Shown piece after piece: positions 7,871 to 34,381 of a stretch of 64,000 nt of DNA. Numbering within the stretch: the stretch's first letter is position 1; every line of letters begins with the position of its first letter. Below the pieces are notes generated by a model. It worked only from the letters and a program-made list of their open reading frames with translations, was not told the DNA's origin and did no database searches. The position numbers and the translations under genes were made by a program. Origin of the DNA: Acholoe squamosa (taxonomy: Eukaryota; Annelida; Polychaeta; Phyllodocida; Polynoidae); assembly GCA_949317995.1 (NCBI GenBank), contig OX439043.1, positions 186,001 to 250,000 of the forward strand. The letters run 5' to 3'.

Positions 7871-7872
7871 AG

Positions 7873-15479: not shown

Positions 15480-15806
15480 TTATAATATTATCGTGTCTTC
15501 ACTCGGATAAAGTTCTTCTACTATAAGAAGAGTTATTTCTATGTCGTAGGTTTCAAACTGGTGCCGGCTCACACTTGCGATTGTTTCACGAATTCTATTG
15601 ATCGCTTCCCGAAGTTCTTTTTCATACTTTATGCTGTCCGTTATAAGATTGCATGCAGTGTAGTTCAGTGGACATATTTTTCTGTTTTTTTCCATCACAA
15701 TTAGCCTAAACTTGAAAGGGTATGCGTCGTCCAAACACCCTAGCTTTTTTTTAATGCCCAATCGTTTAGCAATAGAAACTCTGTGAAGATGAAGAGCTGC
15801 CATAGC
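15480..15806 (-). pseudogene. 3' half of the herpesvirus gene interrupted by the Polinton
   Basis: Reading on the minus strand, this is the C-terminal part (about 107 codons plus stop) of a gene whose 5' half lies at 34064-34381. The two halves are in the same frame across the 6-bp duplicated target CATAGC, so one uninterrupted gene of about 212 codons existed before insertion. The fragment is helical and basic. Some frame continues into the Polinton terminal repeat and ends the apparent ORF at 15824, but that part is element sequence. Family unknown. Confidence 0.8.
15801..15806. repeat. Left target-site duplication CATAGC
   Basis: CATAGC here and again at 34064-34069, directly outside the two ends of the element. 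A 6-bp duplication is the known hallmark of Polinton integration. Confidence 0.9.
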
Positions 15807-16212
15807 AGTAGTATATACATGCAAACTGAGTGCAATGGATTAGCTACTAACTAGGTCATGACCTACTGGTAGACCGGAAGTGACCTAGTTTCAGCCAATC
15901 AGAGGGCTGGATTTGACAGGAAGTGACGTCATAAGGTCATGACCTAGTTTTTTCGACCAATCAGAGAGCTGGATTCCATTTGACCTAGTGACCTGACCTA
16001 GTTACATAAATTAAAAGAATTGCGCAATACCTAGAGCTGACCTACTTGCAAACCGGAAGTGACCTACTAACCTACTTGCAAAAACGTATGACCTACGTAT
16101 GAGGGTGCATTGCGCAATGCTTGTAAGAATTTACACAATGTTCTGATGCAATACTTTTATGGATTTACGCAATACTTATGACTCATGCATTAAAATAAAA
16201 CACAACTCATTT
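15807..16212 (+). repeat. Left terminal inverted repeat of the Polinton
   Basis: Matches the complement of about 33640-34063. The outer roughly 330 bp differ by only a few substitutions (for example GAGTGCAATGG against GAGCGCAATGG). The inner part, with ATTGCGCAAT-like and TTACGCAATAC motifs, has small indels. The high similarity suggests a fairly recent insertion or conversion between the repeats. Confidence 0.9.
15853..15961. promoter_or_regulatory. Regulatory cluster in left TIR: AGGTCATGACCT x2, CRE, CCAAT x2
   Basis: AGGTCATGACCT occurs at 15853-15864 and 15934-15945; TGACGTCA at 15924-15931; CCAAT at 15895-15899 and 15957-15961. Further TGACCT half-sites follow to about 16095. AGGTCA inverted repeats with no spacer are classic nuclear-receptor sites and TGACGTCA is the CREB/ATF site. 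All are present in mirror image in the right TIR, which suggests the TIR acts as an enhancer/promoter like an LTR. Confidence 0.55.
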
Positions 16213-16432
16213 ATTTCACATAACAGATTATATTTTTTTATTAGACACAATATTTACAGATGAAGACAGATTTTCCATTTCCGGGGCGTGCACATATACT
16301 ACAAAAACATTTGTTGTGTGTGAATTTACTTGCTTGATACCAGCTTTGGCCAGTGAGACTAGTTTTCCATGTGTTGTGGAAACAATAACTGTTAAGTTTG
16401 GCTATGTTAGATATAGCATGCTCGAACAAAGC

Positions 16433-17113
16433 CTAGGCCAGGAAGTAAGTTTGACTGTTTTTGGGTCCAGGTAAAAGACCAGATAAAAAACCATCCTTAA
16501 AGTTTACCTCAAAGGAGAAATGATTTTTCACTCCAGGTATACTTAAGGCATGAAGTTCCAGAGAGACCTGCAGACATGTGAAACAAATAGTTTTAGCAAT
16601 AGCAGATACTTCCAGTTTACAATTACACTGACAAAACACTCCTACTATGGGATTACATTCTAACTCTTGGAGAGTAAGAGCAAACTTTCTTACACTTCCT
16701 AAAGTGTACCTTGTGTAGTGTCTTGGGCAGCCAGGTTCAGTGTGCAATTGATATACTCCTATACACCAATCATGCATTATCAAGTTAACTTTTTTCACTC
16801 GACAATAGTACATACAGTTTCTGTAGGCGTCCCAAAAAGCTGAAGAGAAATATTTGTACATTTTAACACTAGTTATACAGTGGTCAACAGTGTCTGGTTC
16901 AGCTCCTCTAAAATAACCAATGTTTTCTGCAGGTATTATTTCCCAAAAGAAATTCTCTGAACATCCACATGCTACAGAACTTATATCATTGTCAGGTGTT
17001 ATAGAAGAAGCTTGATTATATGAAGCAACACTTTGTAAAACTGGACGCATGTAATAGTCATAAGGTGGAGTTTCTGTGGTTTGCTCCACAAGCATAGCTT
17101 CTAAACTTTCCAT
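16433..17113 (-). CDS. Polinton Cys-rich accessory protein, ORF ends at TAG with open continuation
   Basis: ATG at 17113; 226 residues to TAG at 16433-16435. The same frame then stays open for another 63 codons, to about 16241, and that tail ends in a zinc-site-like pattern (CFCSICARPGNGKSVFICKYC). The main ORF also has CQCNCKL and CFTC pairs. One gene with a premature TAG, or stop-codon readthrough, explains this better than chance. It is the leftmost gene of the element, read towards the left TIR, with AATAAA on the minus strand at about 16210. No family is recognised. Confidence 0.6.
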   Translation of the reverse strand: MESLEAMLVEQTTETPPYDYYMRPVLQSVASYNQASSITPDNDISSVACGCSENFFWEIIPAENIGYFRGAEPDTVDHCITSVKMYKYFSSAFWDAYRNCMYYCRVKKVNLIMHDWCIGVYQLHTEPGCPRHYTRYTLGSVRKFALTLQELECNPIVGVFCQCNCKLEVSAIAKTICFTCLQVSLELHALSIPGVKNHFSFEVNFKDGFLSGLLPGPKNSQTYFLA

Positions 17114-17384
17114 GTTAAAATGGTTGCTTAAATCTAACCAGATACTAATAATCTGGTGAACGTGACGCTATGAGTTAAGAAATCTGGTACCACTTTTTTT
17201 CTGTTCCAACTTAATTTCTTCAGCGCCGGATTTTTTATTTTTTGTCGTGAACATGTACAGCGTTCACTTTTGTGAAAAGTTTTTTTTTTATTTTTGGGTG
17301 ATACAGTTCACTTTTCTTACTTTTTATTAGTTTTTTTTCATGATACAGTACACATTTTTTTTACCTTTGTTTTTTATTTGAAAA

Positions 17385-17705
17385 ATGTTCATTTGAACAA
17401 AAAATATTTTCCAGTTTAACACTGTTTTCTATGGAAAAAAATGTTCATTTGAACAAATGTTCGTTTGAACAATTGTTCAAATGAACATTTTCCATTTTAA
17501 CACTGTTTTCTATGGGGAAAAATGTTCATTTGAACAAATGTTCGTTTGAACAATTGTTCAAATGAACATTTTCCATTTTAACACTGTTTTCTATGGGGAA
17601 AAATGTTCATTTGAACAAATGTTCGTTTGAACAATTTTTCAAATGAACATTTTCCATTTTAACACTGTTTTCTATGAAGGAAATTTGTTCATTTGAACAA
17701 TTTGT
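17385..17705. repeat. 81-bp tandem repeats with GTTCAAATGAAC-type palindromes
   Basis: Three full 81-bp units start at about 17441, 17522 and 17603, with partial units on each side. Each unit holds ATGTTCATTTGAAC and its complement around an AACAATTGTTC centre, then the spacer TTTTAACACTGTTTTCTATG. The array lies between the 3' end of polB and the 5' end of the Cys-rich gene, so it may be a promoter/enhancer of the latter or a replication element. Confidence 0.85.
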
Positions 17706-17769
17706 TTAAAATTTTTTTCTTTCAACGAAATGTACAACTGGAAGTGAAACTAGAAAAAGAAACCATTTT

Positions 17770-20700
17770 TTATATAGAAAGGGGTAGGGTGCTTACACCG
17801 TCTTCACATACTTGTCTCTTTATGTACTGATAGGTTAGACCTTGTTTCCTTTGAGAGTAAGTCGTAATGCTGTGGTTAACTACTTTAAATCCTTTGTTGA
17901 CTACCGTGACAACATTTTCACTGTCCAGTACTTCTTTGTACTTGTCAGTGGTCAGGGGGTTTTGTTTTTGAATTACACCTTTGCAACTCATTTTAACGGG
18001 CACATTTACTCCTGTGCCTATGTAACATTTGGAGTTCAAGGCAGTCATTTCGTCACCTTCCCACTCCACTTTGAATAACCCGGGGGTTCTCTTGTCAAAC
18101 GCCAGACGGCTCTTACAACATGGTTGAGGCAGCCACAGCTCACCCAATACTTTGGTCTGAACATAGGTCTCTCTGTGGTGACTGTTGTCACATGATTCAG
18201 AGGGCAACCATTTGTGACGTTCTCTGAAGAAAGCTTCACGTTTTTCAGGAATAATTACGTCTTCTATTTTCTCTGCACTTAAAGCAAAGTAAAAACTGTC
18301 AGTGTCCATTTCACACATTTCAAAATCTTTCTCGTCTATGTATTCAAGGAGAAAGTCGTAATAGAAAGCCAACATTTTAAGTTTGGCATATTGGTATACC
18401 ATGAACCCTATTTGAACTGGGAGATCGTAGGTGATGGAGGTGGGCAAACAGGACAGTTCTACCGTGTTGTCACTTATGTCTTGCACATCTTGCACTGACC
18501 AGTGCATGGCCAAACGTCTTGCCTTAGAGGGGTGAAGATACTTTGTTTGAACAAAGTTTTGTTTGTTGCATATGGTTTTTCCGTATGAACCATTTCCCAA
18601 AAGTTTGTACAGATCTGACAAAATCTTACAGTCTATATTTTCGTCGCCCTTCCTCCTAGCTTTGGTTACTTCGTCCATGAAGGGTAAAAAAGTCTGTTCT
18701 GGAGTGTATTCTACGAGAAGGTGTACTGTCGTAACTACCAAACCTTTCTCCAGGTACCACTTCAAGAGAGGAGTTCCCAACAAAATTCCCTCTGCGTGGT
18801 AGCTGCCTATAAGTTGGCGTTGCGGTTGTTTTAGCTTACCTGCTGCTTCCAGGTAACGTTTCATATGTTCACCTACGTCTTTTTTTCCTACTAAACAGTT
18901 TTTGAAAATAGGTGTCATTTCACTGAATTTTTCTTTCAGGTATTCAGGTGTTTCTATGTCTACCTGGATAAGTCCAAAAGTTGTTCCTTTAGAAACCCCT
19001 CTCAGTATTTCATCCTGACTTTTTCTGCCTTGGCACAACGGTCTTTTAATTTCCCATTCACTTTTTGTTTCTCTGCACAAGTTTTCAGTTTTTTCTTTCA
19101 ACCACATACACTCATACTTTTCCTCTACTTGGTAACCTAACGACTGAAGATATAGGGTAGTCAAAATGGTATTTTGGTTTTTTTCTTCTAACCATGCCTT
19201 TCCATTGGGGTCTCTCAAAACTGATTTAGTGAGGTGACATATGTGACCATGCCAGTAGCACCCGTGAAACTGGTATACTTTTTTTGAAGCTGGATTATAA
19301 CCGTCCACTTTTATTTTCCTTGAACCCAATACTACTTCCCCGTAGTTGTATTGGTGTAATATCTTGACTTTGTCTGTCACAGTTTTGTATCGCAACCATT
19401 CTGTGGCTGAGTAGCTAATTTGTTGACTGCAAACAGCTTGAAAATCGTTTTCTTTCCTGCGCACCACATAATAACCTGTGCAGTGCTCTTCACCCATGCA
19501 CTTGAGGTACAAGCTGTTAGCATCTACCCCTACTATGTGTCTGCATACTTTGCTTTGTGACCCGTATTTTTTTTGTCTTATTCTTGTTTCTCCACTTTTG
19601 TGATGTCTGTGAAAAATAATAGAGGGACCCCCTACTAAGTTGCGTCTGAGCAAGGAGTGAACATCCTTTTCTTTCTCACCAAAAAGAATGTAAGGAGTGG
19701 CATTAGGTGCAGTGTTGTTGAAAAGAAACTTCAAGGTTAAACCTGGCAAAGTTAAACCGTCTTTGAACATGTCTACCCCACGATCTATAAAAAATTTTGT
19801 GTGCTCGTTTATGGCTAAAACAAAGGGTTTAACATCCAGGTTGTTGTAATATATCAAGTAGTCCTTCATAGTTTTCATTTTGTTTTCTTTCCAGACCTTT
19901 TTACATTCAAGATAATCTTCTTTGCTTATTCCACCACCCGACAAAGAACTGTAGAAGCAGTGGCGTGGAGGAAGAGCTTTGTTGTTCAGTTTTCTTATGT
20001 TGTCCATCCACTCGTAGGGAAAAAAACCTTTTTCAGCTTTCCCTTTTAGAAAGGCTTTCAGGTAGTTTGCGTAGGAATAACCTGGTGCCAAATAGTTAAA
20101 CATGTCAAGGAAAAGAAGATGGTCTGTGTACACTGCTATGTACTTGTTGCATTTTTTTATGGTTTTCATTTCTGTTTTGTCTGTGTCTATAAAAAAAGAA
20201 TGAAATTCCTTTTTTATCAAATTATTGTCATACTTTCCAGAGTTGAAACCTAAAACAGGGACTCTTTCTATGTAGGTAAGAAGTTTTTCCTTCACTTCAA
20301 GAGCATGGGAGATTTTTTTTTGGGGATTTTTTTTGTTCTTTGCTGGAAAAACTTTGCTAGCTTTATGTTCTAGTTCCTTTTGTTTTTCTTCTAGAGAGTC
20401 TAGTTCGTCTAAAACATCTCTAAAATTCTCTTTCACCTGTTCTCCTATCAACTGCCCCAAGTTGTTTATGTGTTCCAACACATTTTTAACCAAAGGATCG
20501 TCGTCCCTGTTGGAATTTCTGACAAAACACACTGGTTCTGTATGCCCAGGAAAATCAGAAGCTACACTGGCAGAAAGGGGTATGTGAGTTTTTTCTATCA
20601 CAGTGTTAGCATTTTCTGGGGACGAATTTTCAGGTTGGACGAAATAGCTTTCAAAGTCAAAAACAATTTTATAGGGGTATATTTTTTTCTCAGGTGAACA

Positions 20701-21912
20701 AACTATTCCCAGTTCCTCTAAAACTTGAAAAACTGTTTTGGATGGATTGTATGCTCCACCTTTGTACCTGAAGCTGACTTTGGTGCAATCTTTTTTCACC
20801 CCATTGTGTTGTTTCAAAAGGAAGCTACGAGTGAAAACTTTATGACACTTTTCACAGGGGTACATTTTACCATACAGTCCCATGTTAGTTATTAAACTTA
20901 CATGGTTTCTGTGTAAGTTCAAGTTCATGATTTTTTTGGATGAACACATGTTTGACCTTATAATTTTAGGTCGCCCCTTTCTTTTACCAAAAGAGGGAAG
21001 GTAAAAGATTCTTATGTTAACTTCAAACATTTTTTCTAACCTGTCTAAATCTCTTATGTTAACACCCTCAAAAGTCTCCTTGTTCACCCCTGGATAGGCT
21101 TCAAGGAAAAGCTCTTGAGTTTTTTCTAAAGATTCATACAGGAAGAAAGACAGACATCTAAAGAAACACAAGTTGTCCTTGTACGCCCTTTTGGTTTTAG
21201 GGTCTCTGTGAAAGTGTTGCATTCCTCTTTGTCTTAAACCTGGTGGAACAGTTTTCATTTTACCTAAAAGATATTCTCCTCCCGTAGCCCTTATCAGTGT
21301 GATGTTGGCGTTCACGTTGCCTATTACACTCCATTTAGTAGAGGGTCTTTGAGTGTCTTCTTTAATGTTGTTTTCTATTAAATCTAAACACTCTGCAAAG
21401 TCTTTGTCGTCCCTTATAAAAATGTAAGGGTCTCTATGACTTTCACTGTCATAGAACAAAGACGAGTTGTTGGCAGAAGCATGAAAGTACATGACTTTCT
21501 CTTCTTCTTCTTCCTCCTTAGAGGAAGACAACAACCTTCCAAAAGAGACAGCCACTTTGTAAGCCATAACTTGATTTCTATGAATAGAGGTAAGCGCCTC
21601 TATTACCTGTTTGGCTCCCAAGTCTTTGTTGAAACTTGTCATTCTGACGTTGAAAATGGACTGAAGCTTACCAAGCACAGCCAAACCTGAAGCTATGGAC
21701 TTGAAGTTGTCACGGTAACTGCTTTTATGCAAAGAATTTTTTTCTATTTCTTTTGGAAGTTCTAAGCTGTCGGAAAAAGTTTCTCTTCTACAAGAATCTG
21801 AGTTACATAAAGTTTTTCCACTGTTTTCTACAGTAACCAAACGTGGAGGTCTAGGGGTGTTACACATTGGACAGTTGACGGTGTAAAGTTGTTTTACCTT
21901 TTTGGGCGGCAT
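17770..21912 (-). CDS. polB: Protein-primed family B DNA polymerase (Polinton PolB)
   Basis: Start chosen at ATG 21912 (MPPKKVK), since the upstream frame has no ATG; 1380 residues. In order: an N-terminal CxxC zinc-type pair; a segment near residue 250 (NLCFFRCLSFF) resembling the OTU-like cysteine protease region seen in some Polinton polymerases; a C2H2 finger at about 353-370; ExoI FDFES near 419; ExoII GFNSGKYDNN near 556; motif A DANSLYL near 796; motif B GNGSYGK near 1107; motif C MDTDS near 1202. The catalytic Asp residues are present, so the enzyme looks competent. It replicates the element by protein priming at the TIR ends. Transcribed leftwards. Confidence 0.95.
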   Translation of the reverse strand: MPPKKVKQLYTVNCPMCNTPRPPRLVTVENSGKTLCNSDSCRRETFSDSLELPKEIEKNSLHKSSYRDNFKSIASGLAVLGKLQSIFNVRMTSFNKDLGAKQVIEALTSIHRNQVMAYKVAVSFGRLLSSSKEEEEEEKVMYFHASANNSSLFYDSESHRDPYIFIRDDKDFAECLDLIENNIKEDTQRPSTKWSVIGNVNANITLIRATGGEYLLGKMKTVPPGLRQRGMQHFHRDPKTKRAYKDNLCFFRCLSFFLYESLEKTQELFLEAYPGVNKETFEGVNIRDLDRLEKMFEVNIRIFYLPSFGKRKGRPKIIRSNMCSSKKIMNLNLHRNHVSLITNMGLYGKMYPCEKCHKVFTRSFLLKQHNGVKKDCTKVSFRYKGGAYNPSKTVFQVLEELGIVCSPEKKIYPYKIVFDFESYFVQPENSSPENANTVIEKTHIPLSASVASDFPGHTEPVCFVRNSNRDDDPLVKNVLEHINNLGQLIGEQVKENFRDVLDELDSLEEKQKELEHKASKVFPAKNKKNPQKKISHALEVKEKLLTYIERVPVLGFNSGKYDNNLIKKEFHSFFIDTDKTEMKTIKKCNKYIAVYTDHLLFLDMFNYLAPGYSYANYLKAFLKGKAEKGFFPYEWMDNIRKLNNKALPPRHCFYSSLSGGGISKEDYLECKKVWKENKMKTMKDYLIYYNNLDVKPFVLAINEHTKFFIDRGVDMFKDGLTLPGLTLKFLFNNTAPNATPYILFGEKEKDVHSLLRRNLVGGPSIIFHRHHKSGETRIRQKKYGSQSKVCRHIVGVDANSLYLKCMGEEHCTGYYVVRRKENDFQAVCSQQISYSATEWLRYKTVTDKVKILHQYNYGEVVLGSRKIKVDGYNPASKKVYQFHGCYWHGHICHLTKSVLRDPNGKAWLEEKNQNTILTTLYLQSLGYQVEEKYECMWLKEKTENLCRETKSEWEIKRPLCQGRKSQDEILRGVSKGTTFGLIQVDIETPEYLKEKFSEMTPIFKNCLVGKKDVGEHMKRYLEAAGKLKQPQRQLIGSYHAEGILLGTPLLKWYLEKGLVVTTVHLLVEYTPEQTFLPFMDEVTKARRKGDENIDCKILSDLYKLLGNGSYGKTICNKQNFVQTKYLHPSKARRLAMHWSVQDVQDISDNTVELSCLPTSITYDLPVQIGFMVYQYAKLKMLAFYYDFLLEYIDEKDFEMCEMDTDSFYFALSAEKIEDVIIPEKREAFFRERHKWLPSESCDNSHHRETYVQTKVLGELWLPQPCCKSRLAFDKRTPGLFKVEWEGDEMTALNSKCYIGTGVNVPVKMSCKGVIQKQNPLTTDKYKEVLDSENVVTVVNKGFKVVNHSITTYSQRKQGLTYQYIKRQVCEDGVSTLPLSI

Positions 21913-22144
21913 TTTTTTTTTTAAGGTTTCTTTTTCTTGTTTCACTTTATGTTCTATATACAAACTTATAACTAAAACCTAACCTAAGTATACATGGAGT
22001 ACATATGGAACTTAAACCTACGCTGGGCTATGTTGACTAAAAACGGCGTACATCTAAATCTAACTACAAATTAGCTGATATACATGATAATGTAAAAGCA
22101 CTGAACAAGGAGCTGTTGACCAGACACTATACAAAGTTGACCAC

Positions 22145-23548
22145 TTACCCAGAGTAGAAATCGGTCGTTTCGTCTAGGAAGGGACCAACTCGTGATTTTA
22201 TGTCCTCCAGAATGAAGGGGGACACAGTGTGTCCGCAGTGTGTGGCTGAGGGGGGCATTCTGAAGCTGGAAGACACCGAGGCATTCATTTCCTCCACGTA
22301 GCTGGTTGTTCCTATGTGAACTTTAGGAGTTCCCTTGTACAAGTTTACCAGGACCATAGCCCGGCCTCCACTGGGGTCGGTGCAGTCTTGGTTCAAGGAC
22401 AACAAAAGATTATCCACCTTCCTCTCTCCAAGGGCAGCTAGGCGGTGTAACTCCTTGTACTTTCCTAGGATGCACTCTATCTGGTCCACTAAGTTCCTGA
22501 ATTCACGCGCCTCTAGGTTCAAGCACCGCTCGTAAGGTTTGTCCAGGTAGGTTCTCAAGCATACTCCCCTGATGCTAGGTTCCCTGTATATTTCTATGCA
22601 GGCGTTGTTATCCCCTTCCGGATAAAAAACTTGGTTGGGGGCAGGTGACTTTTCTTGGAAACCAAATCGAGCAGGCCACTTTTTTACCACCAAAGGCACT
22701 GACCTAAAGCCCACAAGCTTGCTGGAAGAACTGGGGGCAGTGCCCTCCCCAAACTTTTGCCTGTGTGACTTGTCTTTAGGAGAAGGAACACCTGGGACAG
22801 AACCAATTGGCTCGGCACCATAGGATGAAGTCGCTGAGGAAACTGAAGCAGGGGTAGAGACAGGGGTTTTCTTGTGGTAGGCGCGCTTCTGTCTTTTTTT
22901 CTTAGGCTCCCCTTCTCTCTCACTGGAACAGTTTCTTTTTTCCGGCGGGCTTTTAAGAAGCAGCTCCTCTACCGGAACCGGGAGAGAGTACAGAGGAGAA
23001 GGGCCGGTTAAATCTATAACCTCTCCCTGCGAATACCCCCCGCGGTGAGCAGGTGAAGGTGTCCCTTGTGTTAAGTCCACCACTTCTATGGGTTTAACTG
23101 CCGGTGATGAGGTTGTAAGGTCTATAACCTTTATTGGACTGACCTGGGGAGAAGGTTCCTCCGGAGTCACGGGTGAGTAAGAGGCGGACGTAGGTGCTTC
23201 AGTGGGGGGTTGGTAGTTCAAAGGTGCCGGGGGATTGATGTATTCCCTGATGTCAAAATCGCCGTCGCCAGCTTCCTGAGGAGAGCGATCCCGGACGCGA
23301 TCCAGGAAATCAGTGATTTCGCCATGAAGAGCTGCAAGAGCGGCTTCCTGTTCTCCTGCATCAGGCACTTCAGTTGGAAGCCGAGCAGGAGTTGCAGGTG
23401 TTTTATCAGGTGAGGCTGGAGAGGTAGGAGGAGGGGCGATGCCCGACGTCTTTTCCTCTGTCTGTTTAGAAGTAGTAAAAGTTAGTGGAGCCAGTTTTTT
23501 AGCTCCTCCTCTCCTGACGCTAAGTCCCGTCTTCATGCGACCAGGCAT
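22145..23548 (-). CDS. Disordered protein with three SUMO-interaction-type motifs
   Basis: Start taken at ATG 23548 (467 aa). Residues 1-230 are Pro/Ser/Thr-rich and disordered. They contain three closely spaced V-(I/V)-D-L-T motifs near residues 141, 156 and 177, which match SUMO-interaction motifs. A basic KKKRQKR near 217 looks like a nuclear localisation signal. The last 180 residues look folded and Cys-containing. The stop codon TAA is inside GGGTAAGTGG, a consensus splice donor, so a spliced form with another C-terminus is possible. The gene lies upstream of polB on the same strand. A role in handling host SUMO/PML-type nuclear defence is an inference. Confidence 0.65.
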   Translation of the reverse strand: MPGRMKTGLSVRRGGAKKLAPLTFTTSKQTEEKTSGIAPPPTSPASPDKTPATPARLPTEVPDAGEQEAALAALHGEITDFLDRVRDRSPQEAGDGDFDIREYINPPAPLNYQPPTEAPTSASYSPVTPEEPSPQVSPIKVIDLTTSSPAVKPIEVVDLTQGTPSPAHRGGYSQGEVIDLTGPSPLYSLPVPVEELLLKSPPEKRNCSSEREGEPKKKRQKRAYHKKTPVSTPASVSSATSSYGAEPIGSVPGVPSPKDKSHRQKFGEGTAPSSSSKLVGFRSVPLVVKKWPARFGFQEKSPAPNQVFYPEGDNNACIEIYREPSIRGVCLRTYLDKPYERCLNLEAREFRNLVDQIECILGKYKELHRLAALGERKVDNLLLSLNQDCTDPSGGRAMVLVNLYKGTPKVHIGTTSYVEEMNASVSSSFRMPPSATHCGHTVSPFILEDIKSRVGPFLDETTDFYSG

Positions 23549-23945
23549 TGTTCTCCTTGAAGATGAAAGGGTGGCAGGGCTGGAAGATGCAGGAGCAGGA
23601 CGGCGAACAGCAGACAAACGTCAGAAAAGGTTTGATGAAGATCGAGCAGCTCAAGTCTACTTTATAGTAACTATCCTGATACGATGCTGGGACGTTCCCT
23701 TGTCGTTCAGATAACGTACAACCACGTCCATGAGTCGTAGATAACCGTGCTTTTCCATTCATAGTATGTTTTACACTTAGCCAGTGTTGTTTTGGAAAAA
23801 AGTAAAAAGCTTAACTCAAATAAAAAACGTGATAACGTTCAGTCAACGTTCAGGGTGAGGCTTGTAAAACGAGTCTTGTTGTTACCATTCTGTAATTAAC
23901 GCAGACCATTCGTCATTTATCAGAACTAGCTTCTCTCAAGCAGAC
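23549..23945. promoter_or_regulatory. Divergent promoter region of the Polinton
   Basis: About 400 bp between the leftward SIM-motif gene and the rightward gene at 23946. No gene is seen in it. Gene direction in the element switches here, so it should hold both promoters. Confidence 0.5.
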
Positions 23946-24602: not shown

Positions 24603-24837
24603 TAAAACTGAACAAAAATAAACGATGATCCTCCGGGTAAGGCCCCTGGGCCAAACCCACCCTTCCACATGTTTTCCCCTCTTTTCAGAACGCTCAGGCA
24701 CTGACCCTGACGTTTGTTTCGTCCTTGAGCAATAAATCATTTCAGGAAAGTGCGATAAGGAAAGACTGACAGGTTTCCTATAAAGGTTAAACGGGGACTA
24801 AACCATCGTTATTTGACACGACAACCTTCGACCTACT

Positions 24838-25461: not shown

Positions 25462-25544
25462 CAAATTAAAAGAACGAAGAACGATGTAACATGCTTACCT
25501 AAACAGGGGGAAGGGAATGGGAGAGATATATAGAATAGGATAGA

Positions 25545-25805: not shown

Positions 25806-25893
25806 GTCAACTGTATGCTTTCTAGCCTGTCATAACCTACCTGCCTTCCTACCTGCCTACCTTACTTGCTCAACGCCTTTTATTTTGGACGCT

Positions 25894-26523: not shown

Positions 26524-26536
26524 GATATCGTCCAAC

Positions 26537-27226: not shown

Positions 27227-27227
27227 A

Positions 27228-27593
27228 ATGGTGACCAAAAGATCTCCTTCTGGAGGAAAATTTAAAACAATTAGGAAACATTACCACTTGTTGAAACACA
27301 TATCCAAGTGTTCCTCGGCAGAGTGTTCCCACATTATCAAAGGTCTCAGCGATGAGGTCATTAGGTTGATGAGTCAAATTTGCGTCAACGTAATGAACAA
27401 AAACCTGTTGCGTAACGAGTCCGACGCAGTCAAACGTTTATCACCCTACAAGAAAGAACTCAAGTCAGTCACAAGGCACAAGGCTACCGTTAAGCAGAAG
27501 AGGAAAACCTTTGAGCAAAAGGGTGGGTTTTTGGGAACCATTTTGGGCCTCGCCTTACCCCTGATAACAGGTCTCATAGGAGCACGTCGATAA
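27228..27593 (+). CDS. Small basic Polinton protein with hydrophobic C-terminus
   Basis: 121 residues. A basic helical body is followed by Gly-Gly and a hydrophobic helix near the end (FLGTILGLALPLITGLIG, then ARR). Small genes of this build next to the packaging ATPase and integrase are common in animal Polintons. The function is not established; a membrane-active or core minor virion protein is plausible. It begins 2 bp after the ATPase gene and ends 7 bp before the next one, typical of this compact block. Confidence 0.7.
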   Translation: MVTKRSPSGGKFKTIRKHYHLLKHISKCSSAECSHIIKGLSDEVIRLMSQICVNVMNKNLLRNESDAVKRLSPYKKELKSVTRHKATVKQKRKTFEQKGGFLGTILGLALPLITGLIGARR

Positions 27594-27599
27594 AAAATC

Positions 27600-28559
27600 A
27601 TGTCTTATTCAAGGATGGCCCTCGTAAGGGCGGATCTTGTTCCCCGAGAAAAAAAACCTTCTTTTGTTAGTCCTTCCTCTCCTCCCCAGCCTGGACCTAG
27701 TGTTCAAGACCAGTACTACAGCACTCAACTTTTAAGAGAAGGTTTAACTCCTGATTCCAGCCTGGTTCAAGTCCTGAACCACCTTCAAAGTAAAGCACAT
27801 GAGGTGCTTAACTCTCCTAACCTCAAACTGAAGGAAAAGTTAAGGCAGTACAATCAACTTATGATAAAGTCGGGAATTTTAACTAAAAAAGCCAAGGCCT
27901 TAGGACAACGTAGGGAAGGTCCCTATCCTGGTCGAGCAGTAGGACAAGGCCCTGCAGGAGCAGCAGCAGCAGCAGCAGCTGGGGGTGTAAACAATTCTTT
28001 AGAAGACACCGACGACGGCGACGACGATGATGACCACACTTTCACAGAGACTAGAGACGATCCACCACTTCCTGACGATTCAGACGGAGACAGTGTAGAC
28101 GAGTTCAAAGGGGAGGAAGGCTTTAAACCTCGTGCAAGAGACAACACAGAGGGTATGGACGCCGACATAAAAGAAAGAATACCTGCAAGTTACAGAACGA
28201 CTGCTAAAAATCTCTACAGAGAATTATCTCGTCACGGAAGTCAAATTTTGAATTGGAACAGAGACGGAGAAATATATGTCAACGGGGAACGTGTGCCTGG
28301 AACTGACATAACAGATTTGTTAGCTTTTGCTGCCCGACCAAAGTCTTTGAAAAAGGACCAACCTAAAGGAAGTCAGGTTTTCATGAGAGCAGTTAAAAGG
28401 CTGAACCCCACCTTAAAATTTGTCAAAAACAAGTCGGCTTTTGCAGGGCACAGTCCTTCCTTTGCTGCCAGTCCCTTGAAAAGAGCTTCCCCTATCAAGA
28501 AGAGGAAAGTAAGTCAAAAAGGAACTGGACGTAAGTTTATATGGCGCACAAGGCTTTGA
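27600..28559 (+). CDS. Polinton protein with Asp-rich linker and conserved C-terminal domain
   Basis: 319 residues. The N-terminal helical part is followed by an Ala run and an acidic linker (DTDDGDDDDD, about residues 135-150). A folded domain follows at about 195-290 (IPASYRTTAKNLYRELS, INGDGEIYVNGE-like strand) and then a basic tail (KRASPIKKRKVSQKG). This domain occurs next to Polinton integrases in many animal genomes, but its role is unknown to me. It overlaps the integrase start by 19 bp in another frame, which suggests translational coupling or alternative transcripts. Confidence 0.7.
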   Translation: MSYSRMALVRADLVPREKKPSFVSPSSPPQPGPSVQDQYYSTQLLREGLTPDSSLVQVLNHLQSKAHEVLNSPNLKLKEKLRQYNQLMIKSGILTKKAKALGQRREGPYPGRAVGQGPAGAAAAAAAGGVNNSLEDTDDGDDDDDHTFTETRDDPPLPDDSDGDSVDEFKGEEGFKPRARDNTEGMDADIKERIPASYRTTAKNLYRELSRHGSQILNWNRDGEIYVNGERVPGTDITDLLAFAARPKSLKKDQPKGSQVFMRAVKRLNPTLKFVKNKSAFAGHSPSFAASPLKRASPIKKRKVSQKGTGRKFIWRTRL

Positions 28560-29620
28560 AAAAAGATGTCCTCAGGTTTTACACAGATCCTAAACAACCT
28601 GGAAGTTTCACCAGCGTATCTAAACTTCAACGTCATCACTTCAAGAAAACAAAGAAAAAAAACATAGAACAAGCTTTGGAAGATGTAGACGCTTACACCA
28701 GACACAAACCTTACAAGAGAAGATTTCCAAGAAGAAAAACACAAACATGGGGGATAGACAAACAGTGGCAACTTGACCTCATAGACATGCGAGAATTTTC
28801 AAAGGAAAACAAAGGATACCAGTACATTCTAGCGGGAATAGATGTTTTTTCAAGGTATGGTTTTGGACAACCTGTGAAAAGTAAGAGAGCTGATGACGTG
28901 ACAGAGGCTTTCAAAAAAATGAGCAAAGAAAGAAAACCTCAACAAATTCAAACTGACAAGGGCAAAGAGTTTGTCAACAAAATTTTCAAAAAACACTGTG
29001 AAGATCAAAAAATCAATTTTTTCACAGGAGAGAACGACGACGTGAAGTGTGCCTTAGCCGAAAGATTCAACTCTACTTTACAAGGAAAAATGTGGAGATG
29101 TTTCTCTCATTTCAATAACTACAAATGGGTTGACTTGCTGCCCGACTTGGTTAAGTCCTACAATTTGACTTACCACAAAACCTTAGGAGCTGCCCCTTCA
29201 GACATAAATAAAGACAACTCTGAAGTCTTGTTCTACAGGTTGTACGATCAACCTCAAAAGAAAAAAGTTCCTGTCCTTCAGTTGAAGAGAAAAAATCAAG
29301 TGCGAATGTTGAAAACAAAGAAAACATTTAACAGAGGGTACGAACCTAACTGGACTGAGGAAATATACACAGTCGACAACATTTCGCCCAAAGGGTACCA
29401 CCTGAAAGATCTCCTTGGAGAAGAGATAAAAGGAAGCTTCTACGAACCTGAAGTTCAGAAGGTGCAAGTCCGTCACGGAAGACGCTACAACATAGAAAAA
29501 ATAGTAAAATACAGAGGAAAAGGCAAGAAAAGAGAAGCCTTGATCAAGTGGAAGGGTTATGGAGACAAGTTTAACTCTTGGGAACCTGTCAAGAACATAA
29601 ACAAATGGCGTTTACCTTAA
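28541..29620 (+). CDS. Retroviral-type integrase with C-terminal chromodomain
   Basis: 359 residues. The rve catalytic core shows D79 (QLDLIDM), D139 (QTDKGKEF) and E174 (LAERFNSTLQ), a DDE triad with spacing near 35. A chromodomain lies at about 313-355 (YNIEKIVKYRGKG...ALIKWKGYGDKFNSWEP). All catalytic residues are present. It inserts the element with 6-bp staggered cuts, matching the CATAGC duplication seen at both ends. The chromodomain usually guides integration to histone marks, which is notable given the target here is a herpesvirus gene. Overlaps neighbours on both sides. Confidence 0.95.
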   Translation: MAHKALKKDVLRFYTDPKQPGSFTSVSKLQRHHFKKTKKKNIEQALEDVDAYTRHKPYKRRFPRRKTQTWGIDKQWQLDLIDMREFSKENKGYQYILAGIDVFSRYGFGQPVKSKRADDVTEAFKKMSKERKPQQIQTDKGKEFVNKIFKKHCEDQKINFFTGENDDVKCALAERFNSTLQGKMWRCFSHFNNYKWVDLLPDLVKSYNLTYHKTLGAAPSDINKDNSEVLFYRLYDQPQKKKVPVLQLKRKNQVRMLKTKKTFNRGYEPNWTEEIYTVDNISPKGYHLKDLLGEEIKGSFYEPEVQKVQVRHGRRYNIEKIVKYRGKGKKREALIKWKGYGDKFNSWEPVKNINKWRLP

Positions 29621-30942
29621 CTTTACCTAGTAACTCATCTATGAACGTTTTTCCTGACAACACTTTAACTAGTTACAATACAATTTTGGCAGAATACATT
29701 AACTCTCCTACTCAGTTAGAGTGTGCTCTTCAAGAAATAACCTGTCCTACCACGTGGTACAACGTTAAAGAAGAACCCATTCTCTTGGTACAGGGAGAAA
29801 ACGACCTGACAAACAACCTCCGCTCTGTAGTAGCTTTATTGAACAAACGCAGAAGAGAATTTTTTCCTCTGGAAAAACCAGGAGCCCATAGTGTCTTCAG
29901 TAGAGCTTCAAGCTCTACATCAAATTTATCAGCCCAATCTGCTTTGAAGAGAGGAGTAAAAATAACAAAAAACCTACGTCATGTCAACCCTGTGGGATCG
30001 ACTGAAACCATTCCTCCTGCTGGTCCTGCAAGTGAAAGTCCACCAACTCCTGCTGCTGCGACTGAGACGCCATCTGGAGGATTCACTTCTAACCAACCCA
30101 CGCCAGAGAAGGAGGAAAAGGAAGAGGAGGAGGTTGAGGGGGAGCGTGACACGGCAGGCAGAGAGAAAAGGGAAATATCGTCGGCTGTGGCTGAAGTGAT
30201 GTCTATGGACGACAGGGAAAAAAGGTCTCTTTCTTTTTTTGAAGAAAAGGCCGTCTTCACAGACTCTGCTAATGTTTCTCCGCTCTCTCCCAGTCAGTTA
30301 CAGGCTGTGAAAATAAGTACACGCTTCAAGGAAATTAGCAGATACCTGTCTAAGTATTACTTCAAGGAAGGTAGTATCTACAATATGTTTGCCTTAGAAG
30401 GTGTGAACCTGGAAAGCAACTCAGAGTTGATAGGATACTTGAACAGGACCATAAATAAACTACAGAGCATGTTGGTGAGAAAACTAAGAAACTACAGGAA
30501 AAACAACAAAGCCACCGTGTTTCACTACAACAAATACACAATGAAAAGTGTAGTTTCCTTGCCTCCTGGTGTGGTCATGCAACTCCCAGAAAACTTAGGG
30601 AAACAATTAGGTTTTGACGGAAGTGTTTTCCTAAGTGGAAAAACACAAAGCCCCTACGTGGTAGACCTTCAGTTCAAAAGTCGATGTGCTTTCGTGTACT
30701 CTGACATAGTCAAGCACAGTCTTGTGGGTGATTCTAAAGCACCCCTTCTGAGGCAAATCAACATAAATCGCTACAACGGTGACATGCAGACCATAAGTTT
30801 CCAGAACTTGATATATCTGCCAGTCACTAAAACCACCTTCAGACAGATAGGGATATACTTAAGAGACAAGACTGGGGAACCTATACCATTTGAAAGCGGA
30901 TCAGTGTCGGTGGTACTTGCCTTCAGACCTCTTCAAGGATAG
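29605..30942 (+). CDS. Minor capsid (penton-type) protein
   Basis: Start at ATG 29605, inside the last 16 bp of the integrase gene; 445 residues. The N-terminal part reads as beta strands (MAFTLTLPSNSSMNVFPDNTLTSYNTILAEYI). A disordered, Glu/Pro-rich insert spans about 120-215, then strands resume to the C-terminus (TISFQNLIYLPV, VSVVLAFRPL). Position between integrase and the pVI/pX-like gene, and the strand-rich ends, fit the single-jelly-roll penton-type protein of Polintons. The assignment is by position and character rather than an exact motif. Confidence 0.75.
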   Translation: MAFTLTLPSNSSMNVFPDNTLTSYNTILAEYINSPTQLECALQEITCPTTWYNVKEEPILLVQGENDLTNNLRSVVALLNKRRREFFPLEKPGAHSVFSRASSSTSNLSAQSALKRGVKITKNLRHVNPVGSTETIPPAGPASESPPTPAAATETPSGGFTSNQPTPEKEEKEEEEVEGERDTAGREKREISSAVAEVMSMDDREKRSLSFFEEKAVFTDSANVSPLSPSQLQAVKISTRFKEISRYLSKYYFKEGSIYNMFALEGVNLESNSELIGYLNRTINKLQSMLVRKLRNYRKNNKATVFHYNKYTMKSVVSLPPGVVMQLPENLGKQLGFDGSVFLSGKTQSPYVVDLQFKSRCAFVYSDIVKHSLVGDSKAPLLRQININRYNGDMQTISFQNLIYLPVTKTTFRQIGIYLRDKTGEPIPFESGSVSVVLAFRPLQG

Positions 30943-30954
30943 GAGTATATTACC

Positions 30955-31425
30955 ATGCTTCACTACTATGGAACACCTCCATACCTGGCCCCTAGGGGTC
31001 AGTACGCTGAATACTACAGAAAATCACAGTTTGGGAACGGTGCTTTACCAGCGTACGGTGGCAGGGGCAGACAAAGAGGGCACGGACTTGGTTCGTTAAT
31101 AGGTGGTTTACTGAGAGGAGCTGTTCCCCTCTTAAGTAAAATAGGACGCTCGGCTGCCAAATCTGCAGGCAAAGCCTTGCTTTCTACAGGAGCTGGAGTC
31201 TTGTCCGACGTGGTAACAGGAAAAGGCTTCAAGAAAAGTCTAGTTAGGAGAAGTAAAGCTACAGGGAAGAACTTACTCAAAAGGGCTGCTTCTTCTGCTC
31301 AAGGATACATAAAAGGTACATCTGAACCTCCTCCAGTCAAACGACGAGCAACCGGCAAGCGCGGAGGACGTAAGGGGCAACGCGGCAGAGGCAGAGGACA
31401 AGCTAGAGGAAGGACCTTGTTCTAG
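30955..31425 (+). CDS. pVI/pX-like basic core protein
   Basis: 156 residues. A Gly-rich amphipathic segment (GLGSLIGGLLRGAVPLLSKIG, about residues 45-65) is followed by Ala/Lys helices. The tail is extremely Arg/Gly-rich (RGGRKGQRGRGRGQARGR). This matches the build of adenovirus minor core proteins (pVI/pX) and their Polinton counterparts, which are membrane-active and DNA-binding and are cut by the viral protease. It lies 2 bp upstream of the major capsid gene. Confidence 0.75.
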   Translation: MLHYYGTPPYLAPRGQYAEYYRKSQFGNGALPAYGGRGRQRGHGLGSLIGGLLRGAVPLLSKIGRSAAKSAGKALLSTGAGVLSDVVTGKGFKKSLVRRSKATGKNLLKRAASSAQGYIKGTSEPPPVKRRATGKRGGRKGQRGRGRGQARGRTLF

Positions 31426-31427
31426 TC

Positions 31428-32744
31428 ATGAGTCTCCTTCATCCCAAGGGTCAGGTATGTGCAGTAGGTGAACTAGACCTACACGCCTTGCCTGTCACTC
31501 AAAAGGACATATTAAAATGTCAAAAAATAACCAAAACTACCAACAATGCCCTGACTCCACACACTGAATCATTTGACTTCACCTTCGAACCAAGCAACCT
31601 GTACACAGACCTCTCAGAAACTGAGCTGTACATGGAACTGGAAGCCGTGGCGGCAGACGGAACAACTCACCTTGCCGTAGGCATAGAAGCTGCTCCAGTC
31701 AACAACTTGGCACACGCTCTCTTTGCTTCCTGCCAGTTGCTGATAAATGGGGAGAAAGTCACCGGCAACAATGAAGACTATGGTCTCAAGGCCTACATTT
31801 TGGACACAATTTGTTGCAACAAAGAAGACAAAGAGACTCGGTTGAAAGGGTGTCAAAAGTACATGAAAGACACCTGTGGTCACATGGAAGCCAGAGCGGG
31901 CGAAAATGCTGGATGGACGGCACGGAGAGCAGAGTTCAGTGCCCGCAACAAGCATGCCTTGGTAATGAAGCCGCACCTGGATTTAATTAAACAGTGCAAG
32001 GTGCTGCCTCCGAACTGTGAAATCAAGTTCATATTCGAAAAAAATCAGCCCAATTACTACATGATGCAAGCAGCCGATCAAAACTACTGGGTCAAAATCA
32101 CCAAAGCTGAAATGACACTTCTCCAAAAATGTGTCGACGACGAGGTGGTGAAAACTCACGTCAGCAGTGTCAGGAATCCACATTGGGGCCCTTTCAACTA
32201 TCACATAGCCAGGTGTAAAGTAACTAAACACACTTTGGACGGTGGCTCACAAGACTACAGTTGGACTCAACCTGACACTACTCAGATCCCCACCAGGATA
32301 GTCTTGTGTATGATAAAGGAAACAGCAGCTGCTGGGACTAAGACAGAAAATCCTTTCAACTGCAGGCATTTCAACGTGAAGGAAATATGCGTGAGATATG
32401 ACGATCAAAAGTTTGAGTTGAAGACCGACTTCGAAACAGGCAACTGCATCAGAGCCTACAGTCAAATGTTCATAGACAGTGGGCTGTCGGCTTTGGGGCA
32501 AGACTGTGGCATAACTTTGGAAGATTTCAAAGATGGATATTCCTTCTTTGTTTTCGACCTCACCCCAGACAGAGCACCTGAAGACAGTCGTATAAATCTC
32601 ATCAAGCAAGGAAAGCTGGGCATTTCCCTTAGGTTTGCCGCCCCGACTACTCACGCCATATCTGCCGTCTTGTGTTCCTTCTACGACAACAACATCCAAC
32701 TAACGGCTGACTGTCTTCCTGTCACAGACTACCACATGAACTGA
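31428..32744 (+). CDS. Major capsid protein (double jelly-roll, hexon type)
   Basis: 438 residues, intact. Strand-rich sequence throughout, with typical Polinton features: an N-terminal strand run (ESFDFTFEPSNLYTDLSETELYMEL), an INGEKV turn, and a GLKAYILDTI segment. It is placed between the pVI/pX-like gene and the protease. Length and order match the hexon-like major capsid proteins of Polintons. Its integrity argues that the element could still build particles, alone or during herpesvirus infection. Confidence 0.85.
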   Translation: MSLLHPKGQVCAVGELDLHALPVTQKDILKCQKITKTTNNALTPHTESFDFTFEPSNLYTDLSETELYMELEAVAADGTTHLAVGIEAAPVNNLAHALFASCQLLINGEKVTGNNEDYGLKAYILDTICCNKEDKETRLKGCQKYMKDTCGHMEARAGENAGWTARRAEFSARNKHALVMKPHLDLIKQCKVLPPNCEIKFIFEKNQPNYYMMQAADQNYWVKITKAEMTLLQKCVDDEVVKTHVSSVRNPHWGPFNYHIARCKVTKHTLDGGSQDYSWTQPDTTQIPTRIVLCMIKETAAAGTKTENPFNCRHFNVKEICVRYDDQKFELKTDFETGNCIRAYSQMFIDSGLSALGQDCGITLEDFKDGYSFFVFDLTPDRAPEDSRINLIKQGKLGISLRFAAPTTHAISAVLCSFYDNNIQLTADCLPVTDYHMN

Positions 32745-32751
32745 GAAAAAA

Positions 32752-33216
32752 ATGAGAACTTCAGACATAACAGGTGCACTGGGAAACCATCCACACACAA
32801 GACGTTTCTACCTGGGAACTTTTGCCAGTAATCAATGTCCTAAAAAACCAATTCCCTCTACATGTTTCGTCAGTAACACAGATCCAAGCTCTAAACCTGG
32901 TCAGCACTGGGTGGCATTTTACGTTTCTCATAACGGGAATGTATTCTACTTTGATCCCTATGGCTTACCTCCGTTTACTATATATCACCAGAGGTTCATG
33001 CAAAAGTCGTCAGATGGTCACGGGTCATTCAGCAGAAAACAAGTGCAAAACTTTTACGCTAAAACGTGTGGAGCCCACTGCATTAACTTCCTCATAGAAA
33101 CATGTCGGACCAAGGATCCACACCACACTGTGAAAAGGTTTTCTCAGGTCCCCTTCAACTTAATGGACAAAATAGTCAGGCCCTTCCTGAGAAAAAGAGA
33201 GAAGAAGAGGCAATGA
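32752..33216 (+). CDS. Adenain-like maturation cysteine protease
   Basis: 154 residues. His52 (GQHWVAFY), Asp68 (FYFDPYG) and Cys110 (CGAHC) form the catalytic triad in the order of adenovirus protease; Gln near 99 (KQVQNF) may supply the oxyanion hole. The length is that of a minimal adenain. It would process capsid and core precursors during maturation. It is 7 bp downstream of the major capsid gene, and its end is overlapped by the last gene of the element. Confidence 0.92.
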   Translation: MRTSDITGALGNHPHTRRFYLGTFASNQCPKKPIPSTCFVSNTDPSSKPGQHWVAFYVSHNGNVFYFDPYGLPPFTIYHQRFMQKSSDGHGSFSRKQVQNFYAKTCGAHCINFLIETCRTKDPHHTVKRFSQVPFNLMDKIVRPFLRKREKKRQ

Positions 33217-33527
33217 ATTTCGAGATGAGTCCAGAAGAAGTAGCAGTCAAAGCAGACGTGAGCAATCTTTTGGTGAAAGGAAAAGTTAAACGTGAACTGG
33301 ACGTGATAGACGGGCTTCAGAGCACGGCGGAAGTTATAGACAAGATTCTCATCATCATGGCCGAGTTAATGGACAAAGTGGTAGCCCTGGAGGAGAACGA
33401 CATAGGAAGAAAGGCCTTGAAGGATTTAATGGAGAGAATGCGGGCCTTAGAGGACCGTAGTCAAAGTCCTACTCCAGCCAAGACCGGGTGCAGTTGGTAC
33501 TGCAACAAGAATTCATTTTCCATATAA
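33102..33527 (+). CDS. Small helical Polinton protein, last gene of the element
   Basis: ATG at 33102 lies within the protease gene in another frame; a second Met at 33213 just before the protease stop is an alternative start. The C-terminal 90 residues are helical and heptad-like (VIDKILIIMAELMDKVVALEENDIGRKALKDLMERMRALEDR). It probably forms a coiled coil. The function is unknown. AATAAA at 33606 ends the rightward transcripts just before the right TIR. Confidence 0.6.
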   Translation: MSDQGSTPHCEKVFSGPLQLNGQNSQALPEKKREEEAMNFEMSPEEVAVKADVSNLLVKGKVKRELDVIDGLQSTAEVIDKILIIMAELMDKVVALEENDIGRKALKDLMERMRALEDRSQSPTPAKTGCSWYCNKNSFSI

Positions 33528-33605
33528 TATCCATGTACTCTGCTTGCAAAGCATATCTGATTATAATGATTCATACCTAACATGTACTCTGATAGGAAGA
33601 AAAAA

Positions 33606-33611
33606 AATAAA
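33606..33611 (+). terminator. Poly(A) signal of the rightward Polinton transcripts
   Basis: AATAAA in an A-rich run about 80 bp after the last gene and just inside the right TIR. Confidence 0.6.
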
Positions 33612-33639
33612 AAGATTGAATTTAAAAAAACGAGTTGTG

Positions 33640-34063
33640 TCTTTGTTGCATTTAATCTCATATCAAAATAGTGAGTCATAAGTATTGCGTAAATTCATAG
33701 GAACATTGCATCAGAAATTGAGTCATGGTTATTGTGTAAATTCTTACAAGCATTGCGCAATGCACCCTCATACGTAGGTCATACGTTTTTGCAAGTAGGT
33801 TAGTAGGTCACTTCCGGTTTGTAAGTAGGTCAGCTCTAGGTATTGCACAATTCTTTTAATTTATGCATCTAGGCCAGGTCACTAGGTCAAATGGAATCCA
33901 GCTCTCTGATTGGTCGAAAAAACTAGGTCATGACCTTATGACGTCACTTCCTGTCAAATCCAGCCCTCTGATTGGCTGAAACTAGGTCACTTCCGGTCTA
34001 CCAGTAGGTCATGACCTAGTTAGTAGCTAATCCATTGCGCTCAGTTTGCATGTATATACTACT
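33640..34063 (-). repeat. Right terminal inverted repeat of the Polinton
   Basis: Complement of 15807-16212. It contains the same cluster in mirror order: AGGTCATGACCT at 33925-33936 and 34006-34017, and TGACGTCA at 33939-33946. The ends read GTATATACTACT, then CATAGC of the target duplication. Confidence 0.9.
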
Positions 34064-34381
34064 CATAGCCCATGCGGGATCTTTAGGTAGGGCCACTACA
34101 TGGTCTTGGGTAAATTTAAATTGATTAATGCGCATAAAAAGGTTATCATCATCCAAATTGGGCAAGTTAACATCAATTCTAGCACAACTCCGTATTTTAT
34201 TGATATTTTTCCATGTGTCCTTAGTTATATTTACTGAACGTAGAGGGTTTTGGGAATCATCATAAAATCCCCTAATACCTTGAATATGTGCACGATCTCG
34301 CCACTCCTCGGCTGGCATGGGAAGAGGAAAAGGACTGTACTGTCCCGTCTTTCTTTTAGCAGAACTTTTTACAACAAACAT
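34064..34381 (-). pseudogene. 5' half of the herpesvirus gene interrupted by the Polinton
   Basis: The minus-strand ATG at 34381 opens 106 codons up to the CATAGC target duplication (34064-34069). The frame agrees exactly with the other half at 15480-15806. After the duplication the frame runs into the TIR and stops at 34016. The N-terminus is basic (KSSAKRK), followed by a Trp-containing helical region. There is no signal peptide. It is divergent from the terminase gene, whose ATG is 110 bp away. Family unknown. Confidence 0.8.

What the first reader, a model, noticed from the sequence alone, without database searches (positions are those of the whole stretch)
15801..34069. A complete Polinton/adintovirus integrated inside a herpesvirus gene
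The 18,257-bp element has AG ends, TIRs and a perfect CATAGC 6-bp duplication. The herpesvirus gene on both sides is in the same frame across that duplication, so the pre-insertion gene can be inferred with base precision. The element keeps capsid, protease, ATPase, PolB and integrase genes open. One virus-like transposon is thus riding in another virus. If it happened in an infectious herpesvirus, the herpesvirus could carry Polintons between hosts, and the Polinton could be packaged with it or interfere with it.
Basis: partly seen in the sequence, partly recalled or inferred. Interest (0 to 1): 0.97.

Follow-up and report, generated by a model that had tools for sequence, protein, structure and literature searches.

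The report
Virus-like transposon inside chromosome-end herpesvirus
A very young virus-like transposon (Polinton) has jumped into one old, decaying copy of a herpesvirus that sits, in about two dozen other copies, near the chromosome ends of an animal genome; the jump is well supported, but it hit chromosomal DNA rather than a travelling virus, and the herpesvirus at the chromosome ends is the greater surprise.

Summary
An 18,257-bp Polinton (15807-34063; TIRs, (AGT)2 ends, open MCP, integrase and PolB frames) lies in a herpesvirus gene, flanked by CATAGC. The host genome (G000, 1.48 Gb) holds 25 other copies of this viral region, and 25 of 25 have the uninterrupted site with one CATAGC; 23 of 25 keep the gene open over 213-215 codons. 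The target is an endogenous, distally truncated copy with a broken polymerase and a broken neighbouring gene and an older PIF/Harbinger insertion. The Polinton has 0 private changes in 2402 bases against two sisters; the viral flank has 27 in 3427: the Polinton came late. It belongs to a family with 40 near-identical copies among 40 scored. The larger finding is the herpesvirus: 23 of 23 copies on large contigs lie within 285 kb of an end with one polarity, and in 16 of 16 sampled copies one viral end runs straight into (CCCTAA)n. This looks like HHV-6-type telomeric integration, repeated in series, on about 22 of 36 ends. Host and viral family unidentified.

The parts
15807..34063 (+). Polinton/Maverick element, 18,257 bp
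   Evidence: TIRs and TSD; empty site in 25 of 25 other copies
15801..15806 (.). left target-site duplication CATAGC
   Evidence: single copy in 25 of 25 empty sites
34064..34069 (.). right target-site duplication CATAGC
15807..16139 (+). left TIR, starts AGTAGT; further 45-nt repeat at 16141-16185
33731..34063 (-). right TIR; further 45-nt repeat at 33672-33716
17770..21963 (-). PolB candidate (1397 codons): exonuclease and polymerase motifs read by eye, motif names recalled; weak Vsr-endonuclease-like stretch near residues 893-970
   Evidence: no DNA_pol_B Pfam hit
26498..27226 (+). packaging ATPase candidate
   Evidence: weak, below cut-off: Adeno_IVa2 E 0.0056, AAA_14 E 0.0058
28541..29620 (+). 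retrovirus-like integrase with chromodomain
   Evidence: PF00665 E 1.3e-10, PF00385 E 9.2e-9, both over cut-off
29578..30942 (+). minor capsid protein candidate, by gene order only
   Evidence: order int-mcp-PW-MCP-pro of PMC8097293 section 7; no Pfam hit
30955..31425 (+). PW-like protein, by gene order only
31428..32744 (+). double-jelly-roll major capsid protein
   Evidence: 60 homologues; AF2 pLDDT 85.6; Foldseek PBCV-1 MCP E 4.7e-15, mavirus MCP E 8.5e-15; one viral match is filed as adintovirus penton, E 3.2e-16
32752..33216 (+). adenovirus-type cysteine protease candidate
   Evidence: PF00770 E 6.4e-4, 19.9 bits against cut-off 21.3
25627..26523 (+). accessory gene with Death domain
   Evidence: PF00531 E 5.6e-13
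34064..34381 (-). first half of the interrupted herpesvirus gene (function unknown)
   Evidence: whole 215-codon frame in L020, open over 213-215 codons in 23 of 25 copies
15480..15806 (-). second half of the interrupted herpesvirus gene
34491..35483 (+). viral gene next to the site, broken in the window copy (174 + 130 codons); at least 362 codons open in 20 of 25 other copies
35540..36715 (-). next viral gene, 391 codons, still open in the window copy
39696..40409 (+). herpesvirus terminase (DNA_pack_C) piece
   Evidence: PF02499 E 0.0012, below cut-off; 46% identical to P0067, which passes PF02499 and matches HSV-1 terminase subunit 3, E 2.7e-4
58804..62788 (-). herpesvirus DNA polymerase, broken in the window copy
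   Evidence: PF00136 E 2.2e-23; 70% to P0001; 2 stops in the matched stretch of the window copy, 20 of 35 matched stretches genome-wide full length without stop
7446..7871 (.). perfect telomere array (CCCTAA)n, 426 bp, between two viral copies
1..7445 (.). proximal end of the neighbouring, more distal viral copy C9a; viral terminus at about 7445
   Evidence: 6500-7440 found at the equivalent end of other copies, 1-6499 by continuity; 16 of 16 sampled copies continue into CCCTAA
50800..55200 (.). second host transposon (PIF/Harbinger-like) in the same viral copy; outer borders not mapped
   Evidence: PF13359 E 2.3e-22; dispersed in host, nearest listed 98%, no listed match in another viral copy, 34 of 723 candidates scored

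Best explanation
A host-genome Polinton, part of a recent burst, used its integrase to insert (6-bp staggered cut at CATAGC, by comparison with the family) into a 213-215-codon gene of a herpesvirus copy that was already part of the chromosome. That copy (C9b) is one of 26 found with the marker, 23 of them placed near chromosome ends. C9b had been cut off at its distal side and joined to a telomere array, beyond which lies another viral copy (C9a) of the recent burst; it has broken genes and a PIF/Harbinger insertion. Shown: insertion, empty sites, multicopy Polinton, truncation, telomere-array junctions, relative divergence. Inferred: integrase action, order of capping and re-integration, herpesvirus family, host.
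For: 25 of 25 other copies have the empty site. 23 of 23 copies on large contigs are within 285 kb of an end, with one polarity. Window copy stops against CCCTAA where 18 of 18 sampled copies (of 24 others listed) continue. Viral terminus runs into CCCTAA in 16 of 16 sampled copies. Polymerase and neighbouring gene broken; Harbinger insertion not listed in any other viral copy. Polinton: 0 private changes in 2402 bases against its two best listed sisters, against 27 in 3427 for its target; at a shared rate about 19 would be expected, P(at most 1) = 1.2e-7. Forty of 40 scored host copies are near-identical, and none of the other 39 is at a viral place; 2 of 2 sisters with 6-bp TSDs.
Against: No reads were seen, so misassembly is excluded only by the TSD and empty-site logic. 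Part of the 27 private viral changes may have arisen in a replicating virus before integration, which weakens the clock but not the truncation, breakage and Harbinger evidence. Decay is moderate: the 391-codon gene is still open in the window copy, and some other copies are broken too (neighbouring gene in 5 of 25, interrupted gene in 2 of 25).
Confidence: 0.93

Rival explanations
1. The Polinton entered an infectious herpesvirus genome, which later integrated and carried it into the chromosome.
For: The window copy lies about 2% away from the 24 other copies that differ by 0.279% among themselves, so it need not share their history.
Against: 25 of 25 other copies are empty; the Polinton is near-identical to host copies with 0 private changes in 2402 bases while its carrier has decayed.
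Confidence: 0.04
2. One or both junctions are an assembly artefact.
For: The element is repeated many times almost unchanged, which is where assemblies fail.
Against: Perfect TSD, and both flanks match the empty sites to the base in 25 of 25 copies; the right flank carries 27 changes seen in no other copy. A chance join would not make a 6-bp duplication.
Confidence: 0.03
3. On the herpesvirus copies (a separate question): they spread by exchange between chromosome ends after few integrations, rather than by repeated viral integration.
For: 24 copies differ by 0.279% on average, and some are identical over 3.4 kb.
Against: In the 7 of 16 sampled arrays whose inner exit was read, the following sequences differ by eye, one being another viral copy; copies in series with telomere arrays between them fit repeated integration.
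Confidence: 0.45

Closest known systems
Vertebrate Mavericks/Polintons (PMC8097293, passages and section 7 read)
   Same: (AGT)2//(ACT)2 ends, 6-bp TSD, 18.3 kb, TIR 333 nt, int-mcp-PW-MCP-pro order (two of these by position only), open frames
   Different: The modules point away from each other (the paper reports this for cane toad); Death-domain accessory gene; nested in a herpesvirus copy; host not identified
[quoted passage not shown] described in passages of PMC12031113)
   Same: Viral end joined to host-type TTAGGG repeats near chromosome ends
   Different: Here 26 copies with the marker in one assembly, on most chromosomes, some in series, part of them decayed; no infectious form known
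AciHV-3 in lake sturgeon (PMC12031113, passages)
   Same: Integrated herpesvirus with TTAGGG terminal arrays; telomeric location proposed
   Different: There the location was argued from rDNA; here 23 of 23 copies on large contigs map near assembled ends
BelcheriHV-1 and the amphioxus-associated herpesvirus (PMC12373286 and PMC2994540, passages)
   Same: Herpesvirus integrated in an animal genome
   Different: [quoted passage not shown] no telomeric placement in the passages read
Teratorn (PMC5601938, PMC5822658, PMC10175614, passages)
   Same: Multicopy endogenous herpesvirus associated with a DNA transposon
   Different: Teratorn is fused to piggyBac and moves by it; here the Polinton interrupts one copy only, and copies sit at telomere arrays

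Membership tests
[quoted passage not shown]
   sisters
Polinton/Maverick | retrovirus-like integrase | tested here: met
   PF00665 over cut-off
Polinton/Maverick | protein-primed DNA polymerase B | tested here: inconclusive
   order of motifs read by eye in the translation, motif names recalled; no Pfam PolB hit
Polinton/Maverick | double-jelly-roll major capsid protein | tested here: met
   AF2 and Foldseek
Polinton/Maverick | packaging ATPase and cysteine protease | tested here: inconclusive
   hits below cut-offs
Polinton/Maverick | minor capsid protein | not tested
   assigned by gene order only
Herpesvirales | herpesvirus terminase | tested here: met
   via P0067: PF02499 over cut-off and HSV-1 terminase E 2.7e-4; the window protein alone is below cut-off (PDB E about 1)
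Herpesvirales | family B DNA polymerase of herpesvirus type | tested here: inconclusive
   PolB certain; PDB matches rank DNA polymerase delta above herpesvirus polymerases
Herpesvirales | HK97-type major capsid protein, triplex, protease | not tested
   not identified in the window
Malacoherpesviridae or Alloherpesviridae | nearest relatives among named viruses | tested here: inconclusive
   only unnamed homologues; two IMG/VR scans found no relative
HHV-6-like telomeric integration | viral terminus joined to telomere repeats in telomeric orientation | tested here: met
   16 of 16 sampled, of 35 other places listed; the C18 array is degenerate and C9b's has five full repeats
HHV-6-like telomeric integration | other viral end continuing into the terminal telomere | tested here: inconclusive
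   5 of 8 fetched contig-end pieces are telomere arrays, but the distal viral terminus was not read; the C12 right contig ends inside the virus

The most novel reading that the evidence does not exclude
A herpesvirus lineage has become a telomere-resident genomic element of an animal, perhaps an invertebrate: it enters telomeres through its repeat-bearing end, adds itself in series onto truncated older copies, occupies about 22 of 36 chromosome ends with many open polymerase genes, and decaying copies serve as landing ground for a recent Polinton burst.
Probability: 0.45. Interest if true: 0.87.

Novelty: new variant of a known kind. Interest (0 to 1): 0.62.

Why it matters
The nested insertion itself is an ordinary transposition into an endogenous virus, but it shows that this viral copy is an old chromosomal resident. 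The setting matters more: assembled chromosome ends show many copies of a herpesvirus joined to telomere repeats, some in series. If read data confirm it, this gives a natural record of how telomeric herpesvirus integration, truncation and re-integration play out over time, a question known so far mainly from HHV-6 and Marek's disease virus (recalled). The Polinton family, with 40 nearly identical copies among 40 scored, looks like an ongoing invasion that can be tested for polymorphism.

Tried and rejected
Rejected: Polinton carried by an infectious virus (see rivals). Rejected: array 7446-7871 as an internal part of the virus, because 18 of 18 sampled copies lack it at the 7880 side. Host identity: Egg_lysin, molluscan haemocyanin and MHC class I families gave 0 matches, but no control genome rang, so these negatives are weak; about 18 large contigs and TTAGGG ends do not name a host. 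My working guess of a gastropod host and a malacoherpesvirus, which is in my notes, stays unproven and the haemocyanin result speaks mildly against the gastropod. IMG/VR scans for the viral polymerase and Polinton MCP found no relatives. Pfam and PDB gave no identity for the interrupted gene. The apparent xxTAGC preference among Polinton flanks is biased, because the query contained the TSD. In one search the C18 copy came out 9.4% from the window, but BLAST puts it at 96% identity over 1931 bp, so that alignment, and its place in the tree, may be poor.

Papers: passages of PMC10175614, PMC5601938, PMC5822658, PMC11071296, PMC12373286, PMC12031113, PMC2994540 and PMC8097293 (the last also section 7); others only as search listings. 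Doi 10.3389/fmars.2023.1159754 is not held. No report of a Polinton inside a herpesvirus copy was seen in the listings, nor of telomere-integrated invertebrate herpesviruses; that covers one open-access library and those search terms only.
Full report
1. The observation. The element spans 15807-34063 (18,257 bp). Its inverted repeats are 333 nt at 98%, with 6 mismatches, starting AGTAGT and ending ACTACT. CATAGC flanks it on both sides. The flanking gene pieces, 34381 to 34064 and 15806 to 15480 on the minus strand, are open and in the same frame over the duplication.

2. The empty site. The window lies at G000:C9:186001-250000 in a 1.48-Gb genome. The left flank occurs at 26 places (27 rows: 25 full length and one copy split in two rows), the right flank at 26 (26 rows, one cut by a contig end); one of the 26 is the window. 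In 25 of 25 other copies the two flanks meet with exactly one CATAGC, compared over 24 bases on each side, and in 9 of 9 copies compared over kilobases both flanks are collinear. The gene is open over 215 codons in 22 and 213 in 1 of the 25; 2 are broken.

3. The Polinton. Integrase and chromodomain exceed Pfam cut-offs; ATPase and protease hits lie below them. The 438-aa protein is a double-jelly-roll MCP (model pLDDT 85.6; PBCV-1 E 4.7e-15 and mavirus E 8.5e-15; TM-scores mostly 0.5-0.6). PolB shows the expected order of motifs (read by eye, motif names recalled) but no Pfam PolB hit. The order int, 454-aa, 156-aa, MCP, protease equals int-mcp-PW-MCP-pro in PMC8097293 section 7. Of 885 candidates for a 2402-bp piece 40 were scored, and 40 of 40, the window included, are listed at 100% rounded identity, dispersed over the host. 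Two sisters are 18,407 and 18,423 bp, each with a perfect 6-bp TSD.

4. The herpesvirus. The terminase piece at 39696-40409 is below the PF02499 cut-off itself but 46% identical to P0067, which passes PF02499 and matches HSV-1 terminase subunit 3. The polymerase is a family B enzyme with three homologues found, and its PDB matches rank polymerase delta above herpesvirus polymerases. Viral family unresolved; the interrupted gene has no identity.

5. Chromosome ends. Of 26 copies, 23 lie on large contigs; 23 of 23 are within 285 kb of an end and share one polarity; the other three are on small contigs (C21, C38, C40). The terminal segment (window 6500-7440) has 36 near-full-length matches among 40 rows. 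By my count from that table 32 are on large contigs, all within about 345 kb of an end, covering 22 of 36 ends if C1-C18 are the chromosomes (lengths of 17 of these 18 were printed, 53.9 to 127 Mb); 2 of the 32, both near the left end of C3, have the opposite polarity. The four weaker rows include an interior place, C17:49.28 Mb. Of 8 contig-end pieces fetched, 5 are TTAGGG/CCCTAA arrays, 2 are not, and 1 (C12 right) ends inside the virus.

6. Junctions. In 16 of 16 sampled copies (of 35 other places) the viral segment ends at the same base and continues as CCCTAA; the C18 array is degenerate and that of C9b has only five full repeats. Seven of the 16 inner exits were read, and by eye they lead into different sequences. 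In the window, 1-7445 is the proximal end of copy C9a (6500-7440 searched, the rest by continuity), 7446-7871 is a perfect array, and copy C9b starts at about 7876, where 18 of 18 sampled copies, of 24 others listed, instead continue in a shared sequence without an array. A second such case is on C7: the first 350 bases after the array (L087) lie inside other viral stretches. The simplest reading is truncation, telomere capping, then integration of the next virus into that telomere (inferred).

7. Ages. In 3.4 kb right of the insertion, 24 copies differ by 0.279% on average (0 to 1.092%); the window copy differs by 1.9-2.4% from them. Of 63 window differences against 23 copies, 36 are shared with C18 or C8R, leaving 27 in 3427. 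The Polinton differs from its two best listed sisters at 1 and 2 of 2402 positions, none private to the window copy. At one rate about 19 private changes would be expected, P(at most 1) = 1.2e-7; viral-era changes could inflate the 27. The PIF/Harbinger element is 98.3% identical to its best listed relative over the 2410 columns compared, about half of the query, with 27 mismatches; 34 of 723 candidates had been scored. Order: viral copy and Harbinger older, Polinton new. The left TIR is 1 mismatch from the TIR of L003 and the right TIR 2 from L004, so left-right differences look mostly like family variants.

8. Decay. The matched polymerase stretch of the window copy holds 2 stops, whereas 20 of 35 matched stretches are full length without stops (34 of 45 candidates scored). 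The gene next to the site is broken in the window copy but at least 362 codons long in 20 of 25 others; the following 391-codon gene is still open in the window copy.

9. Verdict. A recent host Polinton hit an older endogenous herpesvirus copy. Transport of Polintons by a herpesvirus is not excluded in principle, but nothing here points to it. What deserves follow-up is the telomere-resident herpesvirus.

Noticed in passing
window 7446-7871: Perfect 426-bp (CCCTAA)n array between two viral copies; the viral terminus joins telomere repeats in 16 of 16 sampled copies.
   Followed up: yes
window 28541-30942 and host genome: Polinton burst: 40 of 40 scored host copies at 100% rounded identity over 2402 bp, 885 candidates.
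   Followed up: partly
window 50800-55200: PIF/Harbinger-like host transposon with MADF and DDE genes in the same viral copy; borders and TSD not mapped.
   Followed up: partly
window 25627-26523: Polinton accessory gene with a Death domain, possibly acting on host cell death or innate signalling (inference).
   Followed up: no
window 17770-21963: The PolB candidate carries a Vsr-endonuclease-like stretch (residues about 893-970; PHROG E 3.8e-4, PDB E 0.002).
   Followed up: no
window 5356-5402: Rfam Histone3 3' UTR stem-loop on the minus strand, just over the cut-off (34.3 against 34 bits), in the terminal part of viral copy C9a; no histone gene recognised beside it.
   Followed up: no
window 25536-25800: Inverted TAGGG/CCTAC-type simple repeats around the start of the Death-domain gene in the Polinton; unlike the TTAGGG telomere unit.
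   Followed up: no
left end of contig C3 of the host genome: Five copies of the viral terminal segment, two in opposite polarity: a rearranged end.
   Followed up: no
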